Positions 33,158-41,096 of a stretch of DNA of 64,000 bases are shown piece by piece. The notes under the pieces were generated by a model. That model was not told where the DNA came from. It did no database searches and saw only the letters and a program-made list of their open reading frames with translations. The stretch is from contig JAFEGA010000013.1 of the NCBI GenBank assembly GCA_018240285.1, positions 1 through 64,000 of the forward strand, read 5' to 3'. Origin of the DNA: Pseudomonadota bacterium. Lineage in GTDB: Bacteria > Pseudomonadota > Gammaproteobacteria > Burkholderiales > Nitrosomonadaceae. Numbering within the stretch: the first letter of the stretch is position 1; every line of letters begins with the position of its first letter. A program made the translations under genes and the position numbers.

Positions 33158-36100
33158 TTACGATGTGGAAAATGCAAAGTAATTCAATAAATACCCCCCG
33201 CCGGCGCTACCAAGCGGAATCAACCACGATAGAACCATTGGATGTTGTGTTAGCGGCAGAAAAGGCCCTTTGTTAAGATTTTCTATTTCAGTAATTAGCA
33301 ATTTTACTTGAGAAGAATTTTCTGAATTGTTGTTCTGTATTAATGCATTCAATCTTTTAAGGATTTTTTCTCTGGCTAATTTCGCCGCTCTCGTCAACCG
33401 GAATGTACTGCACCAGGCGATGAACACAATAAAGCCGATAATAATAAAAAGTGATGTTGTGAATTGCCAATTATCAAAGTAAGAATTGCGCGCCAAAATG
33501 AAGAGGAATAGAAAAATGAAGGGGTAGTAAATAAACCCATTGATGGTTTCAGTGGCTTTATAAATGATGTTCATCAGAATTTTATCTTTTACTGCGGCAT
33601 CCGGTAGATTGGATTTTTGGCGATACTTATCGACTAACTTATTGTCAAAATTGATGTTTCTTTCTGTGAGCAAACTTACAAAGTGACTAGTTAAATGTGA
33701 AATATCCACGATGGCGAAAATTAAAGTGAAAAAGGCAAATACTGCGGCAATAACAACCCCGGTGGAAATGTCGAAATTGCACTTGCCTCTGAAAGGAATG
33801 CTAGGGTTAAAAAAATCTTCCCAAAATCCGAAAAAAAGAATACACAAAAAATAAATCAAAAACAGAATCGATATTCGTAAAGCAACATTCGGAAATTTTC
33901 TGTAGGTAGAATATTCACACCAAAGTTCTGAAAATTTAACAGGCTCATTACTTTTTGCTTTCCTCCAATTATCAATCCAAAGATACTTGCAGAAATAATC
34001 TGTATTGCCTGACCATAACGAGAGATTCTCTGCTTTCCCTGCCTGGACGGCTTCACTATTGCATACACTGGGTAAGTAATCTTCTTTGATGGAATCATCG
34101 CCTTTCTTGATCTGATCGCGTATTACCCGAATAAAAATAATAACTAAAATGATTGTTGAAATCCTTATCATAGTGGCTGGCCAGGAACTAATACCGCTGC
34201 TGAAAGATAAAGGCTCAGACCCTAGATCCCTATTGAATAGTACGAAACAATAAAAAACGATCAAAATAAGAAAAAGACCAGCAATTACCCAGATACCAAA
34301 GTGATACCGTCTCGGAAGAACAAGCTGTAAGAGTATCGTTAAAGGGAAAATGCCAATTATTATTAATAATGCAAATATAGGGTTATTGTTTTTAGCATTT
34401 TCCGGTTCTGGATGAATGCTGTTTGTGCGGTTGCTGCTATGACTAAGATCAATCGCGCCATAATTACCAATCTCAAACATCCGTGGTTCTGCGGTCCATT
34501 CATTAGCTTTATCCTGCGCAGATTTACCACAAAGTCCAATCTCACCGTGGCATTGCATTGCAAGTAAAATCGTTAAATAGATAGAAGTTTGATAGACATC
34601 TCTGAATGGTGCGCCTTTTTTCTGTACGATATTACTTCCAACCTGCACTTCATCGTTGAGTTGCAAACCAAAGGGCGATGCAACCAGTAAATTGCGCGTC
34701 CATTTGATTTCAGCCGGATAAAACAGCCGCGCATCGAGATCGGTTGTGAAAAAGAGCGTTTTGGGAAATTTCTTCCGTAGAGCCTGTAATATCAGCAACT
34801 TGTCGTAAGTATCACTACCCGTAATGCCAATCGCCTTAATGCCGCCTTCACTGGCATGTTGATTGTCCAATCGTTTTATTTGCTCGGCAAGGCTGCGTAA
34901 ATAATCAAGCTGGCTTGACCCCACGGGACGTTCTACAGTGTCTTTTGTTTCCTGGTTGTTGGGGTTATTTGCTTGCGATTCCTTATTTTTGTTGTCTTTC
35001 TGAGCCGGAGAATATTCCGAAGTAATACCATCCAATCCGCGTAGATAAGGAAAAGAGTGTACCCAGGGTGGATTACGGTTGCTATTTAATGACGATCTAA
35101 AAGAATGTGCCCAGTCTGACTGACTATTGTTGTTATCTGATGACGGTCTGATTGCATCCAACAGAGATTCGGTCAGTTCTTGCGAATAAAATGTATCTCT
35201 TTCGCCAATCAGTGCAATATGATGCGGTTTATGATTGTCCGCTAGCATAAACCCGGACAGGCCATTACACTTTCTTTCAATAGCTTGTGTGCTTCCAGCG
35301 TGATAAGGAATTACGCCCCGTAATGCGAGTTCACAGAGAATCGTGTTGGCTAATTTATCTTGCGTACTGATTGTTCTTATAATTCTTGTGTTAAGCCATT
35401 CTCTGTTTTTCTGATTACGGGAACCAAAATCCTTATCCAATCGCTCCTCTTTCACGGTGGCGGTAGCTGTGTATATATAACTATCTTCAAGATTCTTATA
35501 GAGAGATACGCTGAAATTACCGGTATCGTTAGCATTAGCATCATCAGTTGAACTTATATCAAAGCTGAGCTTTGATATTTCACGATACATTTCCTTTAAT
35601 GAGTCGGATCCGGCGGGGCCGATTATGCTGAGATGACTCGAAGGTTCTTTAATACCCAGTTCCTTTTTCAGGAAAGCGATGGTATTGAGGGGTGCTTTAG
35701 AGGCCGTGAATCCGCTATTATCCAGCCAGAGTACTAAAATTTTATTGGCATCGTTGTTTTTTTGGTGTTTAAACCATTCGTAGGGCATAAAAGCCCCCAT
35801 ATGACAGAAGTGCACCTTTTCTTTCAGTTTATTCAGTTCTTCTTTGTCTTTATTTTCGGCCAATTGAGCAGCACGCAATTCTCGCAATACTGCATCGCAA
35901 GTTTCTTTAAATTCGACAAATTCGACGTGCTCAGGATCCTGAGGTGTATAGGCTAAATCTGTTAATGCGGATATCACCGCATACCGGGCACGCAGCCGCC
36001 GTTCTTTATCTTCGGCATAAGGGCCACCCGGCACCATTACTGCGAGAACATGTAGTTTTTCATTAAAGCTTTTTCTATCTATTTTTATCTTGCATCTCAG

Positions 36101-36586
36101 TTCTTCGATCGAATGAGCCAATATTTTTGAATCCTTATAGGCTTTTTTCCTGTCTCCCATGTCACCTTGGTCGTAACAAACGCGTGTGGGGCCATGATTG
36201 TATTCGTAACCAAATTGATCTGAAAGCTCGGGAAATAGAATCAAAGAATTTTTCCCATCGCCATCGTTGCGGGCGTTTTTAAACGTGATCTTGCCATGCC
36301 CATCGAGCGAATAGTGAAAGGATATTTCATCGGGTGTTGTCAGATTAATCGAGGCATTTTGGGTTTGCCGGTGTTGTTTACGATGCTCTTCCACGGCTTG
36401 AAACGGATCTTGCCATAACCGGGAACGCACATCTTCGCTGACGGTTCTTTCCGAATCGATCGTGGGTGGCCGGTTGGATTTGAGAATTGATTCCTGCGCG
36501 GCAAAAAGACTTAACAGGATGGCGACGATTGCTATTCCTGGTGTTGCTAGAGAGGATTTCTCATCGGGTTTATTTTGCTCACTCAT
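33158..36586 (-). CDS. Large membrane protein with periplasmic binding-fold domain, unknown
   Basis: A 1142-residue protein I cannot assign to a named family. An N-terminal membrane segment (about 11-33) is followed by a roughly 700-residue region, then eight or so membrane segments between about 733 and 1140 with short loops. Several stretches of the large region read like alternating strands and helices of type I periplasmic binding proteins (ILVLWLDNSGF near 282; HIALIGERDTFYSQ; AIGITGSDTYDKLLILQAL near 584; FFTTDLDARLFYP), with a low-complexity Asn/Lys/Gln insert between them. The topology suggests a periplasmic sensing domain and a membrane output. It stands alone, AT-richer than the hydrogenase genes nearby, ATG preceded by AGGAGATATATC. 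No catalytic motif was recognised. Confidence 0.75.
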   Translation of the reverse strand: MSEQNKPDEKSSLATPGIAIVAILLSLFAAQESILKSNRPPTIDSERTVSEDVRSRLWQDPFQAVEEHRKQHRQTQNASINLTTPDEISFHYSLDGHGKITFKNARNDGDGKNSLILFPELSDQFGYEYNHGPTRVCYDQGDMGDRKKAYKDSKILAHSIEELRCKIKIDRKSFNEKLHVLAVMVPGGPYAEDKERRLRARYAVISALTDLAYTPQDPEHVEFVEFKETCDAVLRELRAAQLAENKDKEELNKLKEKVHFCHMGAFMPYEWFKHQKNNDANKILVLWLDNSGFTASKAPLNTIAFLKKELGIKEPSSHLSIIGPAGSDSLKEMYREISKLSFDISSTDDANANDTGNFSVSLYKNLEDSYIYTATATVKEERLDKDFGSRNQKNREWLNTRIIRTISTQDKLANTILCELALRGVIPYHAGSTQAIERKCNGLSGFMLADNHKPHHIALIGERDTFYSQELTESLLDAIRPSSDNNNSQSDWAHSFRSSLNSNRNPPWVHSFPYLRGLDGITSEYSPAQKDNKNKESQANNPNNQETKDTVERPVGSSQLDYLRSLAEQIKRLDNQHASEGGIKAIGITGSDTYDKLLILQALRKKFPKTLFFTTDLDARLFYPAEIKWTRNLLVASPFGLQLNDEVQVGSNIVQKKGAPFRDVYQTSIYLTILLAMQCHGEIGLCGKSAQDKANEWTAEPRMFEIGNYGAIDLSHSSNRTNSIHPEPENAKNNNPIFALLIIIGIFPLTILLQLVLPRRYHFGIWVIAGLFLILIVFYCFVLFNRDLGSEPLSFSSGISSWPATMIRISTIILVIIFIRVIRDQIKKGDDSIKEDYLPSVCNSEAVQAGKAENLSLWSGNTDYFCKYLWIDNWRKAKSNEPVKFSELWCEYSTYRKFPNVALRISILFLIYFLCILFFGFWEDFFNPSIPFRGKCNFDISTGVVIAAVFAFFTLIFAIVDISHLTSHFVSLLTERNINFDNKLVDKYRQKSNLPDAAVKDKILMNIIYKATETINGFIYYPFIFLFLFILARNSYFDNWQFTTSLFIIIGFIVFIAWCSTFRLTRAAKLAREKILKRLNALIQNNNSENSSQVKLLITEIENLNKGPFLPLTQHPMVLSWLIPLGSAGGGYLLNYFAFSTS

Positions 36587-36761: not shown

Positions 36762-37616
36762 TCAATGAACTGTCGGCCCCGCTTCACGGAATATGGCGTC
36801 AACAGCCAAGGCATCCAGACGGTATTCACGGTTGCAAATATCATCGTGCACAACGACTTCGCCGAATTCCTGCAGAATCGAATCGACTTCCGTCCGCCCG
36901 AGTGAACGCAGCATGGCATAGATCTTGGCGGGATCTTCATGACAACCGTATTGAACAGTTTGCGCATCATAGATGCGGATGGTTTCCTCATAAAACAGCC
37001 GAGTCAGAATTTCTTCTGCAGTCAAATCGAATAAAGCATGGTCATGAACCGTTGCCGCCAAGGCTTCGGCGCGCGGCCAGCCGTCGGGATCCTTCTGATC
37101 GGCGGCGGGCAATTTCTGCAGCAGCAAACCGAAGACGGCGTTATCCGTGGTAATCAGGAACAGGCGTGATGGCAATTGCTCCGATTGCCGGAAATAATGT
37201 TCAAAGATTTCAGCGATATTATCGCCATCGAGCGGCACGATGCTCTGATAGCACTCGCGCATCGACGGCATATCCAAAGTGAGTACCAACCGGCCGTTCC
37301 CGAGCAAATCAGGCGCCGTCTGCGCAGTGATAGTTTGCTCGCATTTGGCCATGCCGCGCAGTTGCAGGGTGTCGGTGCAGTCGATGACCAGCATCGAAAC
37401 CGGGCCGCTGCCGTTCAATTGGATCGTCAAGCGGCCGGTTTGCTTCAGATTCTCGCCCAGCAACAAGGTGACTGCGCTCATTTCTCCCAGCAACCGGGAT
37501 ACCGGTTGCGGGTAATGGCGTCCGGTCAGCATCGCTTGCCAAACGGAATCCAGGTGCACCACGGCGCCGCGGATGTCCAGATTTTCCAGAAGAAAGCGCT
37601 GTACGTAATTACTCAT
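36762..37616 (-). CDS. hslO: Hsp33-family chaperone with incomplete zinc site
   Basis: Hsp33 (HslO) homologue of 284 residues; in E. coli this holdase is switched on by oxidation of four zinc-binding cysteines. The N-terminal fold is complete (RGAVVHLDSVWQ, LLGEMSAVTLLLG, GPVSMLVIDC, PDLLGNGRLVLTLD). In the C-terminal redox domain the linker motif RTEVDSILQEFGEVVVHDDIC aligns with E. coli, but only two of four cysteines remain: Cys225 and Cys261 match E. coli Cys232 and Cys268, while Glu227 and Asp258 replace the other two. The reading frame is intact. It is downstream of hypF on the same strand, about 36 bases on. Confidence 0.9.
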   Translation of the reverse strand: MSNYVQRFLLENLDIRGAVVHLDSVWQAMLTGRHYPQPVSRLLGEMSAVTLLLGENLKQTGRLTIQLNGSGPVSMLVIDCTDTLQLRGMAKCEQTITAQTAPDLLGNGRLVLTLDMPSMRECYQSIVPLDGDNIAEIFEHYFRQSEQLPSRLFLITTDNAVFGLLLQKLPAADQKDPDGWPRAEALAATVHDHALFDLTAEEILTRLFYEETIRIYDAQTVQYGCHEDPAKIYAMLRSLGRTEVDSILQEFGEVVVHDDICNREYRLDALAVDAIFREAGPTVH

Positions 37617-37651
37617 GGCAAGTTCCTAAGCAGTTTTACAAGAAAACGCCA

Positions 37652-38863
37652 TTATACCTGCATGTGTTGCAGCGCTACCCATGCCTGACCTAACGCAATC
37701 GCACTGTCGTCCGGTAATACTTGTTGCCCGCTGAATACATTAAAAGATGTGAAAGCCAACCGGCGGACTAAGCCGTTCCGCAATACGGCGTTGTGAAAAC
37801 ACCCGCCGCCTAACACCAGCCGTGAAATGCCGTGCTGCTTGCCGGCTTGTTCCACCCACGCCGCTAACCCCGCAGCCAGCGTCGCGTGGAAAAGCGCAGC
37901 GGCTAGATTGGTATGGTGAGCGGCATCATGATAATCGGCCATCGTCGCCAGTAACGGGGAAAAATCGAGTTGGTTGTTCGCATCAATGCGGTAGCCATCC
38001 GCCATTGCATCGGTTTCGCCATAGTGCTCGGCCAATTGTTGCAACTGGATCGCGGCTTGCGCTTCGTGCGATTGTAGTGCGCAGATTCCAAGTAAACCGG
38101 CGGCGGCGTCGAATAAACGTCCCATGCTGGAAGTGCGCGGGCAATTCACATTGCTTGCCAGCATCGCCGCCACCGTCGCGGCTGCCGGTTGATCCGGGAA
38201 ACGCCGGGTAATTTCAGCACCGCGGTTAAGCCGGGCGAGCGCGGCTGCGGCCATGCGCCAGGGTTCATGCGCCGCGCGGTCGCCGCCGGGTAAGGCCAGC
38301 GGTGTCAAATGACCGAGACGTTCAAACCGGGTGCCATCGACCAGCAGCAATTCACCGCCCCAGGGTGTGTTATCCGTTCCTAAACCAACCCCATCCAGCC
38401 CCAGGCCTAATACCGGTCCGGTCAATTGATGTTCAGCGCAGACGGCGGCGATATGGGCGTGGTGATGCTGTACCGCGAGCGACGGAATTTGCTGTTGTTC
38501 GGCATAAGCTTGCGCAAATTGCGTACTGTAAAAATCTGGGTGCAAATCGTGCGTAACGATGGCAGGTTGAATGGAATAATTCCGGCACATGCGCTGCACG
38601 GTGCGATCGAATTGATGGCGTGCGTCTGCTGTAGCCAAATCGCCGATGAGCGGGGAAATATATGCGCGGTTTCCTTGCGTCAGGCAGACGGTATTTTTTA
38701 GCCAGGCGCCGCAGGCTAAAACGGAAGGGCCACTAATGGCCAGGGAAATCTGTGTATCGGGCGGATTAGCCAAACCGGGAATCGAGCGCTTGTGCTGTAT
38801 GAGAGATTGCAGCGGCACGGTGGCAACCGGCCATGATCCAATCGATCCATTCTTGCATACCAC
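37652..38863 (-). CDS. hypF: Short HypF (Kae1-like carbamoyltransferase part only)
   Basis: Corresponds to the C-terminal half of HypF, which passes a carbamoyl group towards HypE for cyanide-ligand synthesis in [NiFe] hydrogenases. Present: the [13 protein letters not shown] start of the transferase domain, the HHHAHIAAV metal site (near 132-138), [19 protein letters not shown] and [16 protein letters not shown]. Absent: the acylphosphatase, zinc-finger and YrdC-like domains of the usual 750-residue HypF. At 403 residues it resembles short HypF forms reported in Cupriavidus. The start overlaps hypB by 98 bases, and a GTG 15 codons later is an alternative, still inside hypB. Confidence 0.85.
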
Positions 38864-39686
38864 TGCCTTTCGTGGCGGAAATCTGCATCACGGGCAATCC
38901 GGGATGAATGCGCTGCGCATAGGCAATCGCTTGGTTAACGTCGAAAGTCAGATAAGGCAGTAGGTCGCATTTGTTCAGCAGCATCAAATCGGCGGCGTGG
39001 AACATATCGGGATACTTCAGCGGCTTATCCTCACCCTCGGTAACCGACAGAATCACCACTTTATGCGCTTCGCCCAGATCGAAACCGGAAGGGCACACTA
39101 AATTGCCGACATTTTCGATGAACAGCAGGCTGTTTTGTTGCAGCGGCAATTGCTGCAGCGCCTGGCCGATCATATGCGCGTCCAGATGGCACCCTTTGCC
39201 GGTGTTGATTTGCAGCGCCGGAACACCGGTCGCGCGGATGCGTGCGGCGTCGTGGTCGGTTTGTTGGTCGCCCTCGATCACGGCGATCGGGAAGCGATCC
39301 CGCAGCATTTCGATGGTTTTTACCAGTAAGGTGGTTTTGCCGGAACCCGGACTGGAAACCAGATTCAACGCAAAAATGCCGCGTTCGGCTAAGTACTGGC
39401 GATTCTCATCCGCGTACTGGTTATTTTTTGCCAGAATGTCGCGCTCGATTTTCACCATCCGCGTTTGACTCATGCCGGGTGCATGTGTGCCTGCAATACC
39501 GACGCCGAAATCTATCGTGCCGGGTGTTTGCGGATTCGCAACCGAGGATGGCACGTGCTCATGTGAATGCACGTGACCAGACTGCAACGGACGGAAACGC
39601 AATGACGCATCCGTGCGCTGCTGCGATTGCACCGTTTTGCCATTGATGCGGGTTTGTCCAACACCGCAACCACAAGTCGTACACAT
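38766..39686 (-). CDS. hypB: Hydrogenase nickel-insertion GTPase HypB
   Basis: GTPase that delivers nickel to hydrogenase large subunits. The N-terminus has a Cys cluster (MCTTCGCG), known in HypB as a high-affinity nickel site, then a His-containing linker (HVHSHEH), and a G domain with P-loop [11 protein letters not shown] near 110, [14 protein letters not shown], the zinc/nickel-type Cys-His pair ([10 protein letters not shown]), [10 protein letters not shown] and NKCDLLPYL. 306 residues. AAGGAAG ribosome site; 12 bases after hypA. Confidence 0.95.
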
Positions 39687-39698
39687 AAAGACTTCCTT

Positions 39699-40040
39699 TT
39701 ATTCCACTTCCAGTTCTCGAATGCGCATTTCATCACCCTGCGTGATTTGCAGCGCATAACTGCCGCAATGCGGGCATGCCTGATAGAGTGCAGTAATTAA
39801 TAGAGTGCGATGGCAATCATTGCAAACCGCCTGTCCTGCAATACCGGTAATTTCCAGTTTGGCTTGCCGGGCGATGCTGTCCTCCGTCACCACAGCGAAA
39901 AAGAAACGTAGCGATTCCTGCTCGACGCAGGCCAACTCACCGATTTCCAGCCAAACCGTTTTGACACGGTGAAATTGCTGGGTCTGCGCGGCGTCTTCGA
40001 TCTGTTGCAAGATATTTTCGGCGAGCGATAGTTCATGCAT
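39699..40040 (-). CDS. hypA: Hydrogenase nickel chaperone HypA
   Basis: Partner of HypB in nickel insertion. 113 residues beginning MHELSLAENIL, where the N-terminal Met and His2 form the nickel site, and carrying the zinc-binding pair of CxxC motifs (CNDC and CPHC). Thirteen bases downstream of hupE and 12 upstream of hypB, so a single operon. Confidence 0.95.
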   Translation of the reverse strand: MHELSLAENILQQIEDAAQTQQFHRVKTVWLEIGELACVEQESLRFFFAVVTEDSIARQAKLEITGIAGQAVCNDCHRTLLITALYQACPHCGSYALQITQGDEMRIRELEVE

Positions 40041-40053
40041 CGATGGCTGCGCA

Positions 40054-40656
40054 TCACTGCGTCAATAAAAAACCGCCGTAACACGCGATCATGATACCGC
40101 CGAAACGCATCCAGAAGGTAGCGGCGAATCGCTTGCACAGCAGTGCCAGGCCGATGCCGCCAAGGTGCAACAGCATCGTCGCCAGCATAAAACCGGCGGC
40201 ATAGGAAGCCATCGAGATACTCGCTGGCATTTCGCTGCCGTGCGCGTAGCCGTGACTGAGGGCAAAAAATCCGATCAGCAGCACGCTGGCGCTGAGCGGC
40301 AAGCGCTGGCGAACAGCGAGTAACCCGCCCAGAACGAGCAGCGACAGCACGATGCCATGCTCGGCAAAAGCGACCGGCAAAGTGATCATGCCCAAAAGAC
40401 CGCCCACTCCCATCACGGCGACAAAAATCAGCGGAAACAGCCAAACAATACGGTCATGCGCTTGCGCAGCCCATAGACCGACCGCCGTCATCGCCAGAAC
40501 ATGATCCAATCCGCTCAGCGGATGCGCAAATCCGTGCAGCCAGCCGTTGTGCGGGCCATCGCCGGTATGGGCAAAAAGCGGTAGCGGTAGTAGTAACAAT
40601 AGCGCGACCGGCAGCAAAGAGCGGAGAAGCTTCGGGTTTAAGGTAAGTTTTTTCAT
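40054..40656 (-). CDS. hupE: HupE/UreJ-family metal transporter
   Basis: Six-helix membrane protein of 200 residues, thought to take up nickel for hydrogenase. The signal-like N-terminus is cleaved to leave HTGDGPHNGWLHGFAHPLSGLDHVLAM, the classic His-rich HupE/UreJ motif, and a second motif FALSHGYAHGSEMP follows. The start at 40656 overlaps the protease stop (ATGA), which fixes it; an upstream in-frame ATG at 40674 would lie inside that gene. The placing beside hypA and hypB supports nickel supply. Confidence 0.92.
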   Translation of the reverse strand: MKKLTLNPKLLRSLLPVALLLLLPLPLFAHTGDGPHNGWLHGFAHPLSGLDHVLAMTAVGLWAAQAHDRIVWLFPLIFVAVMGVGGLLGMITLPVAFAEHGIVLSLLVLGGLLAVRQRLPLSASVLLIGFFALSHGYAHGSEMPASISMASYAAGFMLATMLLHLGGIGLALLCKRFAATFWMRFGGIMIACYGGFLLTQ

Positions 40657-41096
40657 AAGTGTTGAGCATGCCATTGCCGGATTTTGCGAATTGCCGCCGC
40701 CAGATTGTTGTCCGCTTGCGCGCTTAAAACATCGCCCAGTTCAAAACGATAACCGCGGATGCGCAATAAAAAAGCCGCTGGCACCGCACCTTGCCGGATG
40801 TGCCGATAGACGTGCAGCAATGCTGCTGGCGTCAGGGCATGACTGGTATAGCTATCATCCTTTTCCGCATACGCGGCGGAAAATTCAAAAGGTTCTTGGC
40901 ACGACATATCCGCGTCAACGAAAATAATCTGATCGAATCCGCAAAGATCGGTAGCATGCTCAATCAAAAGCTGCATGTCAACGAGGCAAGTGACGCCCGC
41001 CAACTGAAGTTGACCGATGTGCTCCACCAGCATGGGACCCAAGCCGTCGTCCCCGCGTCCGGGGTTGCCGTAGCCGAATAACAGCAATTTGTTCAT
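40653..41096 (-). CDS. [NiFe] hydrogenase maturation protease
   Basis: Endopeptidase of the HycI/HyaD/HoxW group that trims the hydrogenase large subunit after metal insertion. It begins MNKLLLFGYGNPGRGDDGLG, the family signature with the first metal-binding acid, then VDADMS (second) and SHALTP (His). 147 residues, short as in proteases for cytosolic bidirectional enzymes. It is the first gene of protease-hupE-hypA-hypB-hypF-hslO, facing the binding-protein fusion gene across a 75-base divergent spacer. No hydrogenase subunit gene is in the window. Confidence 0.88.
   Translation of the reverse strand: MNKLLLFGYGNPGRGDDGLGPMLVEHIGQLQLAGVTCLVDMQLLIEHATDLCGFDQIIFVDADMSCQEPFEFSAAYAEKDDSYTSHALTPAALLHVYRHIRQGAVPAAFLLRIRGYRFELGDVLSAQADNNLAAAIRKIRQWHAQHL

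What the first reader, a model, noticed from the sequence alone, without database searches (positions are those of the whole stretch)
36762..37616. Hsp33 that has lost two of its four redox cysteines
Seen: Cys225 and Cys261 are kept at the exact 36-residue spacing of E. coli Cys232/Cys268, but Glu227 and Asp258 stand where the other two cysteines should be, while the flanking linker and the rest of the chaperone are intact. Known: the E. coli zinc centre needs CxC and CxxC for redox activation. Inference: zinc binding by C-E-D-C ligands, a simple one-disulphide switch, or a constitutive chaperone.
Basis: partly seen in the sequence, partly recalled or inferred. Interest (0 to 1): 0.52.

Follow-up and report, generated by a model that had tools for sequence, protein, structure and literature searches.

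The report
Hsp33 chaperones without the zinc switch
The Nitrosomonas version of the stress chaperone Hsp33 belongs to an old bacterial branch that dismantled the zinc-cysteine switch thought to be universal in this family, in some members down to no switch cysteines at all, while keeping the rest of the protein under strong selection.

Summary
In detail: a full-length, in-frame Hsp33 with C225/E227/D258/C261 where the family has four zinc-binding cysteines. It is not an error and not private to this genome. All 68 other Hsp33 copies read in the genus (named hits: Nitrosomonas) lack the same two cysteines, and so do all typed members of Rhodocyclaceae-type families, a Gallionellaceae bacterium, an Ectothiorhodospira and others. 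On trees built without the C-terminal domain these 'zinc-less' Hsp33 form one clade (100/97). Inside it the last two cysteines are also lost, never C225 alone, giving 35 distinct forms with no switch cysteine (mostly W/F at 225, S/G at 261). Residue 227 varies freely, so a C-E-D-C zinc site is not supported; D258 is almost fixed even when both cysteines are gone, so it looks structural. The domain stays under purifying selection and is predicted to be folded. Best reading: a metal-free lid that senses unfolding, with C225-C261 as an optional single-disulphide pair. Biochemistry is untested. The published family survey that I read calls the four cysteines fully conserved; my searches found no paper describing this clade.

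The parts
36762..37616 (-). hslO/hsp33 ORF, 284 aa, zinc-less Hsp33
36966..37109 (-). linker region (about residues 170-217), with the clade's conserved D-x-DGW-x-R motif
   Evidence: alignment A2 and column comparison; boundaries approximate
36789..36965 (-). C-terminal former zinc (redox switch) domain, residues 218-276
36942..36944 (-). Cys225 codon (first zinc cysteine, kept)
36936..36938 (-). Glu227 codon where the second zinc cysteine should be
36843..36845 (-). Asp258 codon where the third zinc cysteine should be
36834..36836 (-). Cys261 codon (fourth zinc cysteine, kept)

Best explanation
This is a member of a single old clade of Hsp33 whose zinc centre was dismantled. The two middle ligands went once, at the base of the clade; the third position became an almost fixed Asp/Asn that most likely caps the turn in place of a metal thiolate, and neighbouring positions changed too (E/D255 to V/I/L, F260 to I/L, S228 to D/N). 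The C-terminal domain still folds without metal and still acts as a lid over the linker and client site, so activation should follow unfolding of the domain (heat, strong denaturing oxidants) and not zinc release. In the 2-Cys forms such as this one, C225 and C261, former ligands of one zinc and hence close in space, can at most form one disulphide that crosses the two knuckles; it may tune stability. Shown: the sequence pattern, its single origin, the selection. Inferred: no metal, folded lid, mode of activation, the disulphide.
For: Single origin on trees made from residues 1-217 only: 126 zinc-less rows against 70 four-Cys rows, one change, support 99; careful tree 100/97, 72 rows. Position 227 not conserved, D258 nearly fixed (3 changes against a median of 27). 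35 distinct sequences have neither C225 nor C261; 258 is D 171, N 6, E 1 over all 178 distinct zinc-less sequences. C-domain dN/dS mostly 0.04-0.1 in the genus and 0.05-0.3 in most 0-Cys pairs. AlphaFold2 models of the window protein and of a 0-Cys relative are confident through the C-domain, and the window model matches whole Hsp33 structures 1vzy and 1vq0 at TM about 0.80. Zinc-free reduced E. coli Hsp33 is reported to be inactive and zinc release alone not to activate (passages of PMC10598452), so a metal-free lid is plausible.
Against: No biochemistry. A confident AlphaFold2 model does not prove a zinc-free fold, since solved Hsp33 structures were probably in its training. The coupling of C225 and C261 is suggestive only: the independent-pairs test has 2-3 usable pairs and no power. 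Some pairs show looser C-domains (omega 0.54 for the 0-Cys pair L299/L303; 0.56 on very few changes for the 2-Cys pair L029/L057), so decay in some lineages is possible.
Confidence: 0.6

Rival explanations
1. One-disulphide on-switch: oxidation joins C225 and C261, strains or unfolds the domain and turns on the chaperone, a simplified version of the E. coli switch.
For: C225 and C261 kept together in 136 of 178 distinct zinc-less sequences, slower than most columns of the domain (13 and 12 changes, median 27); no typed row keeps C261 without C225.
Against: A bond across the two knuckles should hold the domain together, not open it (inference). Many lineages lost the pair and kept the gene under selection.
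Confidence: 0.2
2. Zinc or iron is still bound by C225, E227, D258 and C261.
For: D258 nearly fixed; E227 common in Nitrosomonas (54 of 68).
Against: 227 is R, K, P, A, Y and others in relatives, and K, D, A, N or V in 14 of 68 copies inside the genus; D258 persists when both cysteines are lost.
Confidence: 0.06
3. Constitutive holdase: without zinc the lid is always partly open, so the chaperone is on at all times and controlled by expression.
For: A single linker mutation is reported to make E. coli Hsp33 constitutively active (passage of PMC10598452); 0-Cys forms have no switch cysteines at all.
Against: Strong conservation and low dN/dS of the C-domain and the clade's own conserved residues suggest a lid that must fold; a useless lid should decay.
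Confidence: 0.2
4. Sequencing error or pseudogene.
For: None found.
Against: 68 of 68 genus relatives read lack the same cysteines; intact frame; purifying selection.
Confidence: 0.005

Closest known systems
E. coli Hsp33 (HslO), redox-regulated zinc chaperone
   Same: Domain order, N-terminal chaperone fold, linker, position of two cysteines.
   Different: No CxC / CxxC zinc centre; cannot form the two neighbouring-cysteine disulphides (pairing recalled).
Chlamydomonas HSP33 (Segal and Shapira 2015, seen only as cited in passages of PMC7423844)
   Same: Hsp33 that lost cysteine and zinc binding and is said to be more sensitive to mild heat or oxidation.
   Different: Loses one cysteine, eukaryotic; here two to four are lost in a large bacterial clade with a nearly fixed Asp/Asn replacement.
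L382 (genome G700, family f109): Hsp33 with only the third switch cysteine
   Same: Zinc centre lost.
   Different: Falls outside the clade: a separate loss.

Membership tests
Hsp33 (Pfam PF01430) | Full-length profile match above the curated cut-off | tested here: met
   230.3 bits against 21.4, profile 2-273 of 273
Hsp33 (Pfam PF01430) | Hsp33 fold including linker and C-terminal domain | tested here: met
   Predicted model only: mean pLDDT 92.7; 1vzy_A and 1vq0_A TM about 0.80 over nearly the whole length
Redox-regulated zinc Hsp33 (HslO) | CxC and CxxC, four zinc cysteines | tested here: not met
   C-x-E and D-x-x-C
Redox-regulated zinc Hsp33 (HslO) | NCBIfam HslO equivalog cut-off (NF001033) | tested here: not met
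   210.5 bits, cut-off 244
Redox-regulated zinc Hsp33 (HslO) | Oxidation-dependent holdase activity and zinc release | not testable with these tools
   Needs purified protein
Zinc-less Hsp33 clade (defined here) | No Cys at 227 and 258; D/N/E at 258; I/L/M/V at 260; one clade on residues 1-217 | tested here: met

The most novel reading that the evidence does not exclude
The clade has changed what Hsp33 senses: from oxidants through zinc release to unfolding alone. In the 2-Cys forms the logic may even be reversed: a C225-C261 disulphide staples the lid shut, so oxidation locks the chaperone off and reduction or heat frees it; the 0-Cys lineages then replaced the staple by an aromatic-small packing pair (W/F225 with S/G261) and became redox-blind.
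Probability: 0.15. Interest if true: 0.78.

Novelty: new variant of a known kind. Interest (0 to 1): 0.6.

Why it matters
Hsp33 is the textbook zinc-thiolate redox switch, and the survey that I read (PMC7423844, section 5) describes four fully conserved cysteines, the second missing in fewer than 10 of 1579 sequences. A whole clade of environmentally important bacteria (nitrifiers, Accumulibacter and relatives) that keeps the chaperone under selection without the switch gives natural variants to separate what zinc, disulphides and unfolding each do. Annotation that calls these proteins redox-regulated by the E. coli mechanism would be wrong about mechanism.

Tried and rejected
C-E-D-C metal site: rejected on the variability of 227 and on D258 in the 0-Cys forms. 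Histidine ligands (H226, H257): both positions are variable in the genus. A second, normal Hsp33 in the same genome: none. A replacement cysteine: C80 is common but is also C in 44 of 70 four-Cys rows, so it is no compensation. In-genus co-loss of both cysteines: the one 0-Cys Nitrosomonas copy (L062) groups with a Rhodocyclaceae-type 0-Cys sequence (97), so it is more likely an acquisition than a loss within the genus. The paired-loss statistics had no power. Zinc-less forms in Alphaproteobacteria-type genomes (same phylum, other class): 30 of 30 typed rows have four cysteines. Gene neighbourhood: hypF-hypB-hypA beside hsp33 in most Nitrosomonas, no bearing on mechanism found.

Rows dropped: two genus fragments (L070, L071) could not be typed at these sites. 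Of the matches, five fragments (G125:C35, G279:C123, G347:C205, G363, G509) were not fetched. For f20, 74 distinct sequences were typed, not all 125 matching genomes, and one of the two fetch lists took the lowest-scoring genomes, so the share of 0-Cys forms is biased upward. Of the class search (143 of 274 genomes matching), the 30 best plus 40 others were typed. Most of the 317 matching genomes of the order search were not typed, and among them one strong f43 match (G349), so f43 may be mixed. Tree rows were thinned by identity and fill, and seven long-branch or oddly composed four-Cys rows were left out of the careful tree. Literature: eight searches of a library that lacks most subscription papers; the original E. 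coli and Chlamydomonas Hsp33 papers were not read. PMC10490939 was searched for Hsp33 passages and has nothing on its cysteines.

Full report
What is there. The minus-strand ORF 36762-37616 encodes a 284-residue protein that matches Pfam HSP33 over its whole length (4e-68) and E. coli Hsp33 at 4.8e-53. At the four zinc positions it reads C225, E227, D258, C261. It is the only Hsp33 of the genome. NCBIfam's HslO model gives 210.5 bits, below its cut-off of 244.

Not an error, not private. Named relatives are Nitrosomonas species. Of 85 genomes searched in the genus, 68 have an Hsp33, and none of the other 40 genomes searched in the family has one. In the 68 other genus copies read, 227 and 258 are never Cys, D258 is invariant, C225 and C261 are each kept in 67, and 227 is E 54, K 5, D 4, A 3, N 1, V 1. 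Cys and Asp codons vary synonymously.

A wider clade. Over all loci typed (388 distinct aligned sequences, the window's own copies left out): 206 with four cysteines from 106 family labels, 136 with C225+C261, 7 with C225 only, 35 with neither, 2 others (L370, L382) and 2 fragments. No family label with a zinc-less member had a typed four-Cys member, but sampling was partial. In genomes of the phylum outside the class 30 of 30 typed are four-Cys.

One origin. Trees were built on residues 1-217, leaving out the domain that bears the trait. With 196 rows the label four-Cys against zinc-less needs one change (support 99, quick tree). A careful tree of 95 rows gives 100/97 for the 72-row clade and puts L382 outside it, a separate loss (the bootstrap had not fully settled). 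The four-Cys state is taken as ancestral because it is general elsewhere. Nitrosomonas copies other than L062 lie together inside Rhodocyclaceae-type sequences next to Propionivibrio and Accumulibacter (99 for the 27-row set), and the other genera of the family lack the gene, which suggests that Nitrosomonas acquired hsp33 already in 2-Cys form; this was not tested by an AU test.

What replaced the zinc. In 126 zinc-less rows against 70 four-Cys rows: 258 is D 119, N 6, E 1; 227 is E 48, R 31, P 12, A 8, K 5 and others; 260 changes from F/Y to I/L/M/V; 255 from mostly E/D to V/I/L; 228 from S/T to D/N; 223 from F to Y/H. On the tree D258 changes 3 times, C261 12, C225 13, residue 227 41, median 27. 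So 227 is no fixed ligand, and D258, kept in 0-Cys forms, is most likely structural. In forms without cysteines 225 is mostly W or F and 261 mostly S or G, which looks like repacking of the site.

Still under selection. dN/dS of the C-terminal domain is mostly 0.04-0.1 in close Nitrosomonas pairs, like the rest of the protein; 0-Cys pairs give 0.05-0.3, with one at 0.54 (L299/L303); one 2-Cys pair (L029/L057) gives 0.56, one pair (L005/L007) has no synonymous change in the domain and one pair (L059/L060) is identical (21 pairs in all). Structure prediction with alignments of the clade alone is confident through the C-domain for the window protein (mean 92.7) and for a 0-Cys relative (95.2); the window model aligns over nearly its full length to B. 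subtilis and T. maritima Hsp33. This is weak evidence on zinc, since such models can be confident without their metal.

Mechanism. In E. coli, the linker masks the client site in the reduced zinc-bound protein; oxidation forms two disulphides, releases zinc and unfolds the domain (passages of PMC10598452). Those passages also report that zinc release alone does not activate and that reduced protein that does not bind zinc can be inactive. The clade therefore can keep the lid while losing the metal. I commit to a metal-free, unfolding-triggered holdase; the C225-C261 pair is at most one disulphide.

Known or new. PMC7423844 (section 5 read whole; other passages) describes four fully conserved cysteines, with the second missing in fewer than 10 of 1579 sequences, and cites an algal Hsp33 that lost one cysteine and zinc binding. 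My searches found no paper on a zinc-less bacterial clade; the library lacks most subscription journals.

Noticed in passing
37652-38863 (-): The HypF-like ORF holds only the C-terminal Kae1-like half of HypF; no zf-HYPF match exists in the whole genome, and the 35 homologous ORFs found in the 80 named loci are all 319-432 aa long, so Nitrosomonas seems to use a C-terminal-only HypF beside hypB and hypA.
   Followed up: partly
36762-40674 (-): hsp33 lies beside hypF-hypB-hypA; a HypF-like hit is present in 36 of the 53 Nitrosomonas-type named loci (my count from the listing) and in none of the other 27.
   Followed up: partly
33158-36586 (-): A 1142-aa membrane-type protein without any Pfam or NCBIfam match; partial relatives beside hsp33 in three named loci.
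   Followed up: no
L382 (genome G700, 1.1 Mb): An Hsp33 outside the clade that kept only the third switch cysteine: an independent loss of the zinc centre.
   Followed up: partly
L062 (genome G013): A Nitrosomonas genome whose Hsp33 has no switch cysteine and groups with a Rhodocyclaceae-type 0-Cys sequence, probably a second acquisition.
   Followed up: partly
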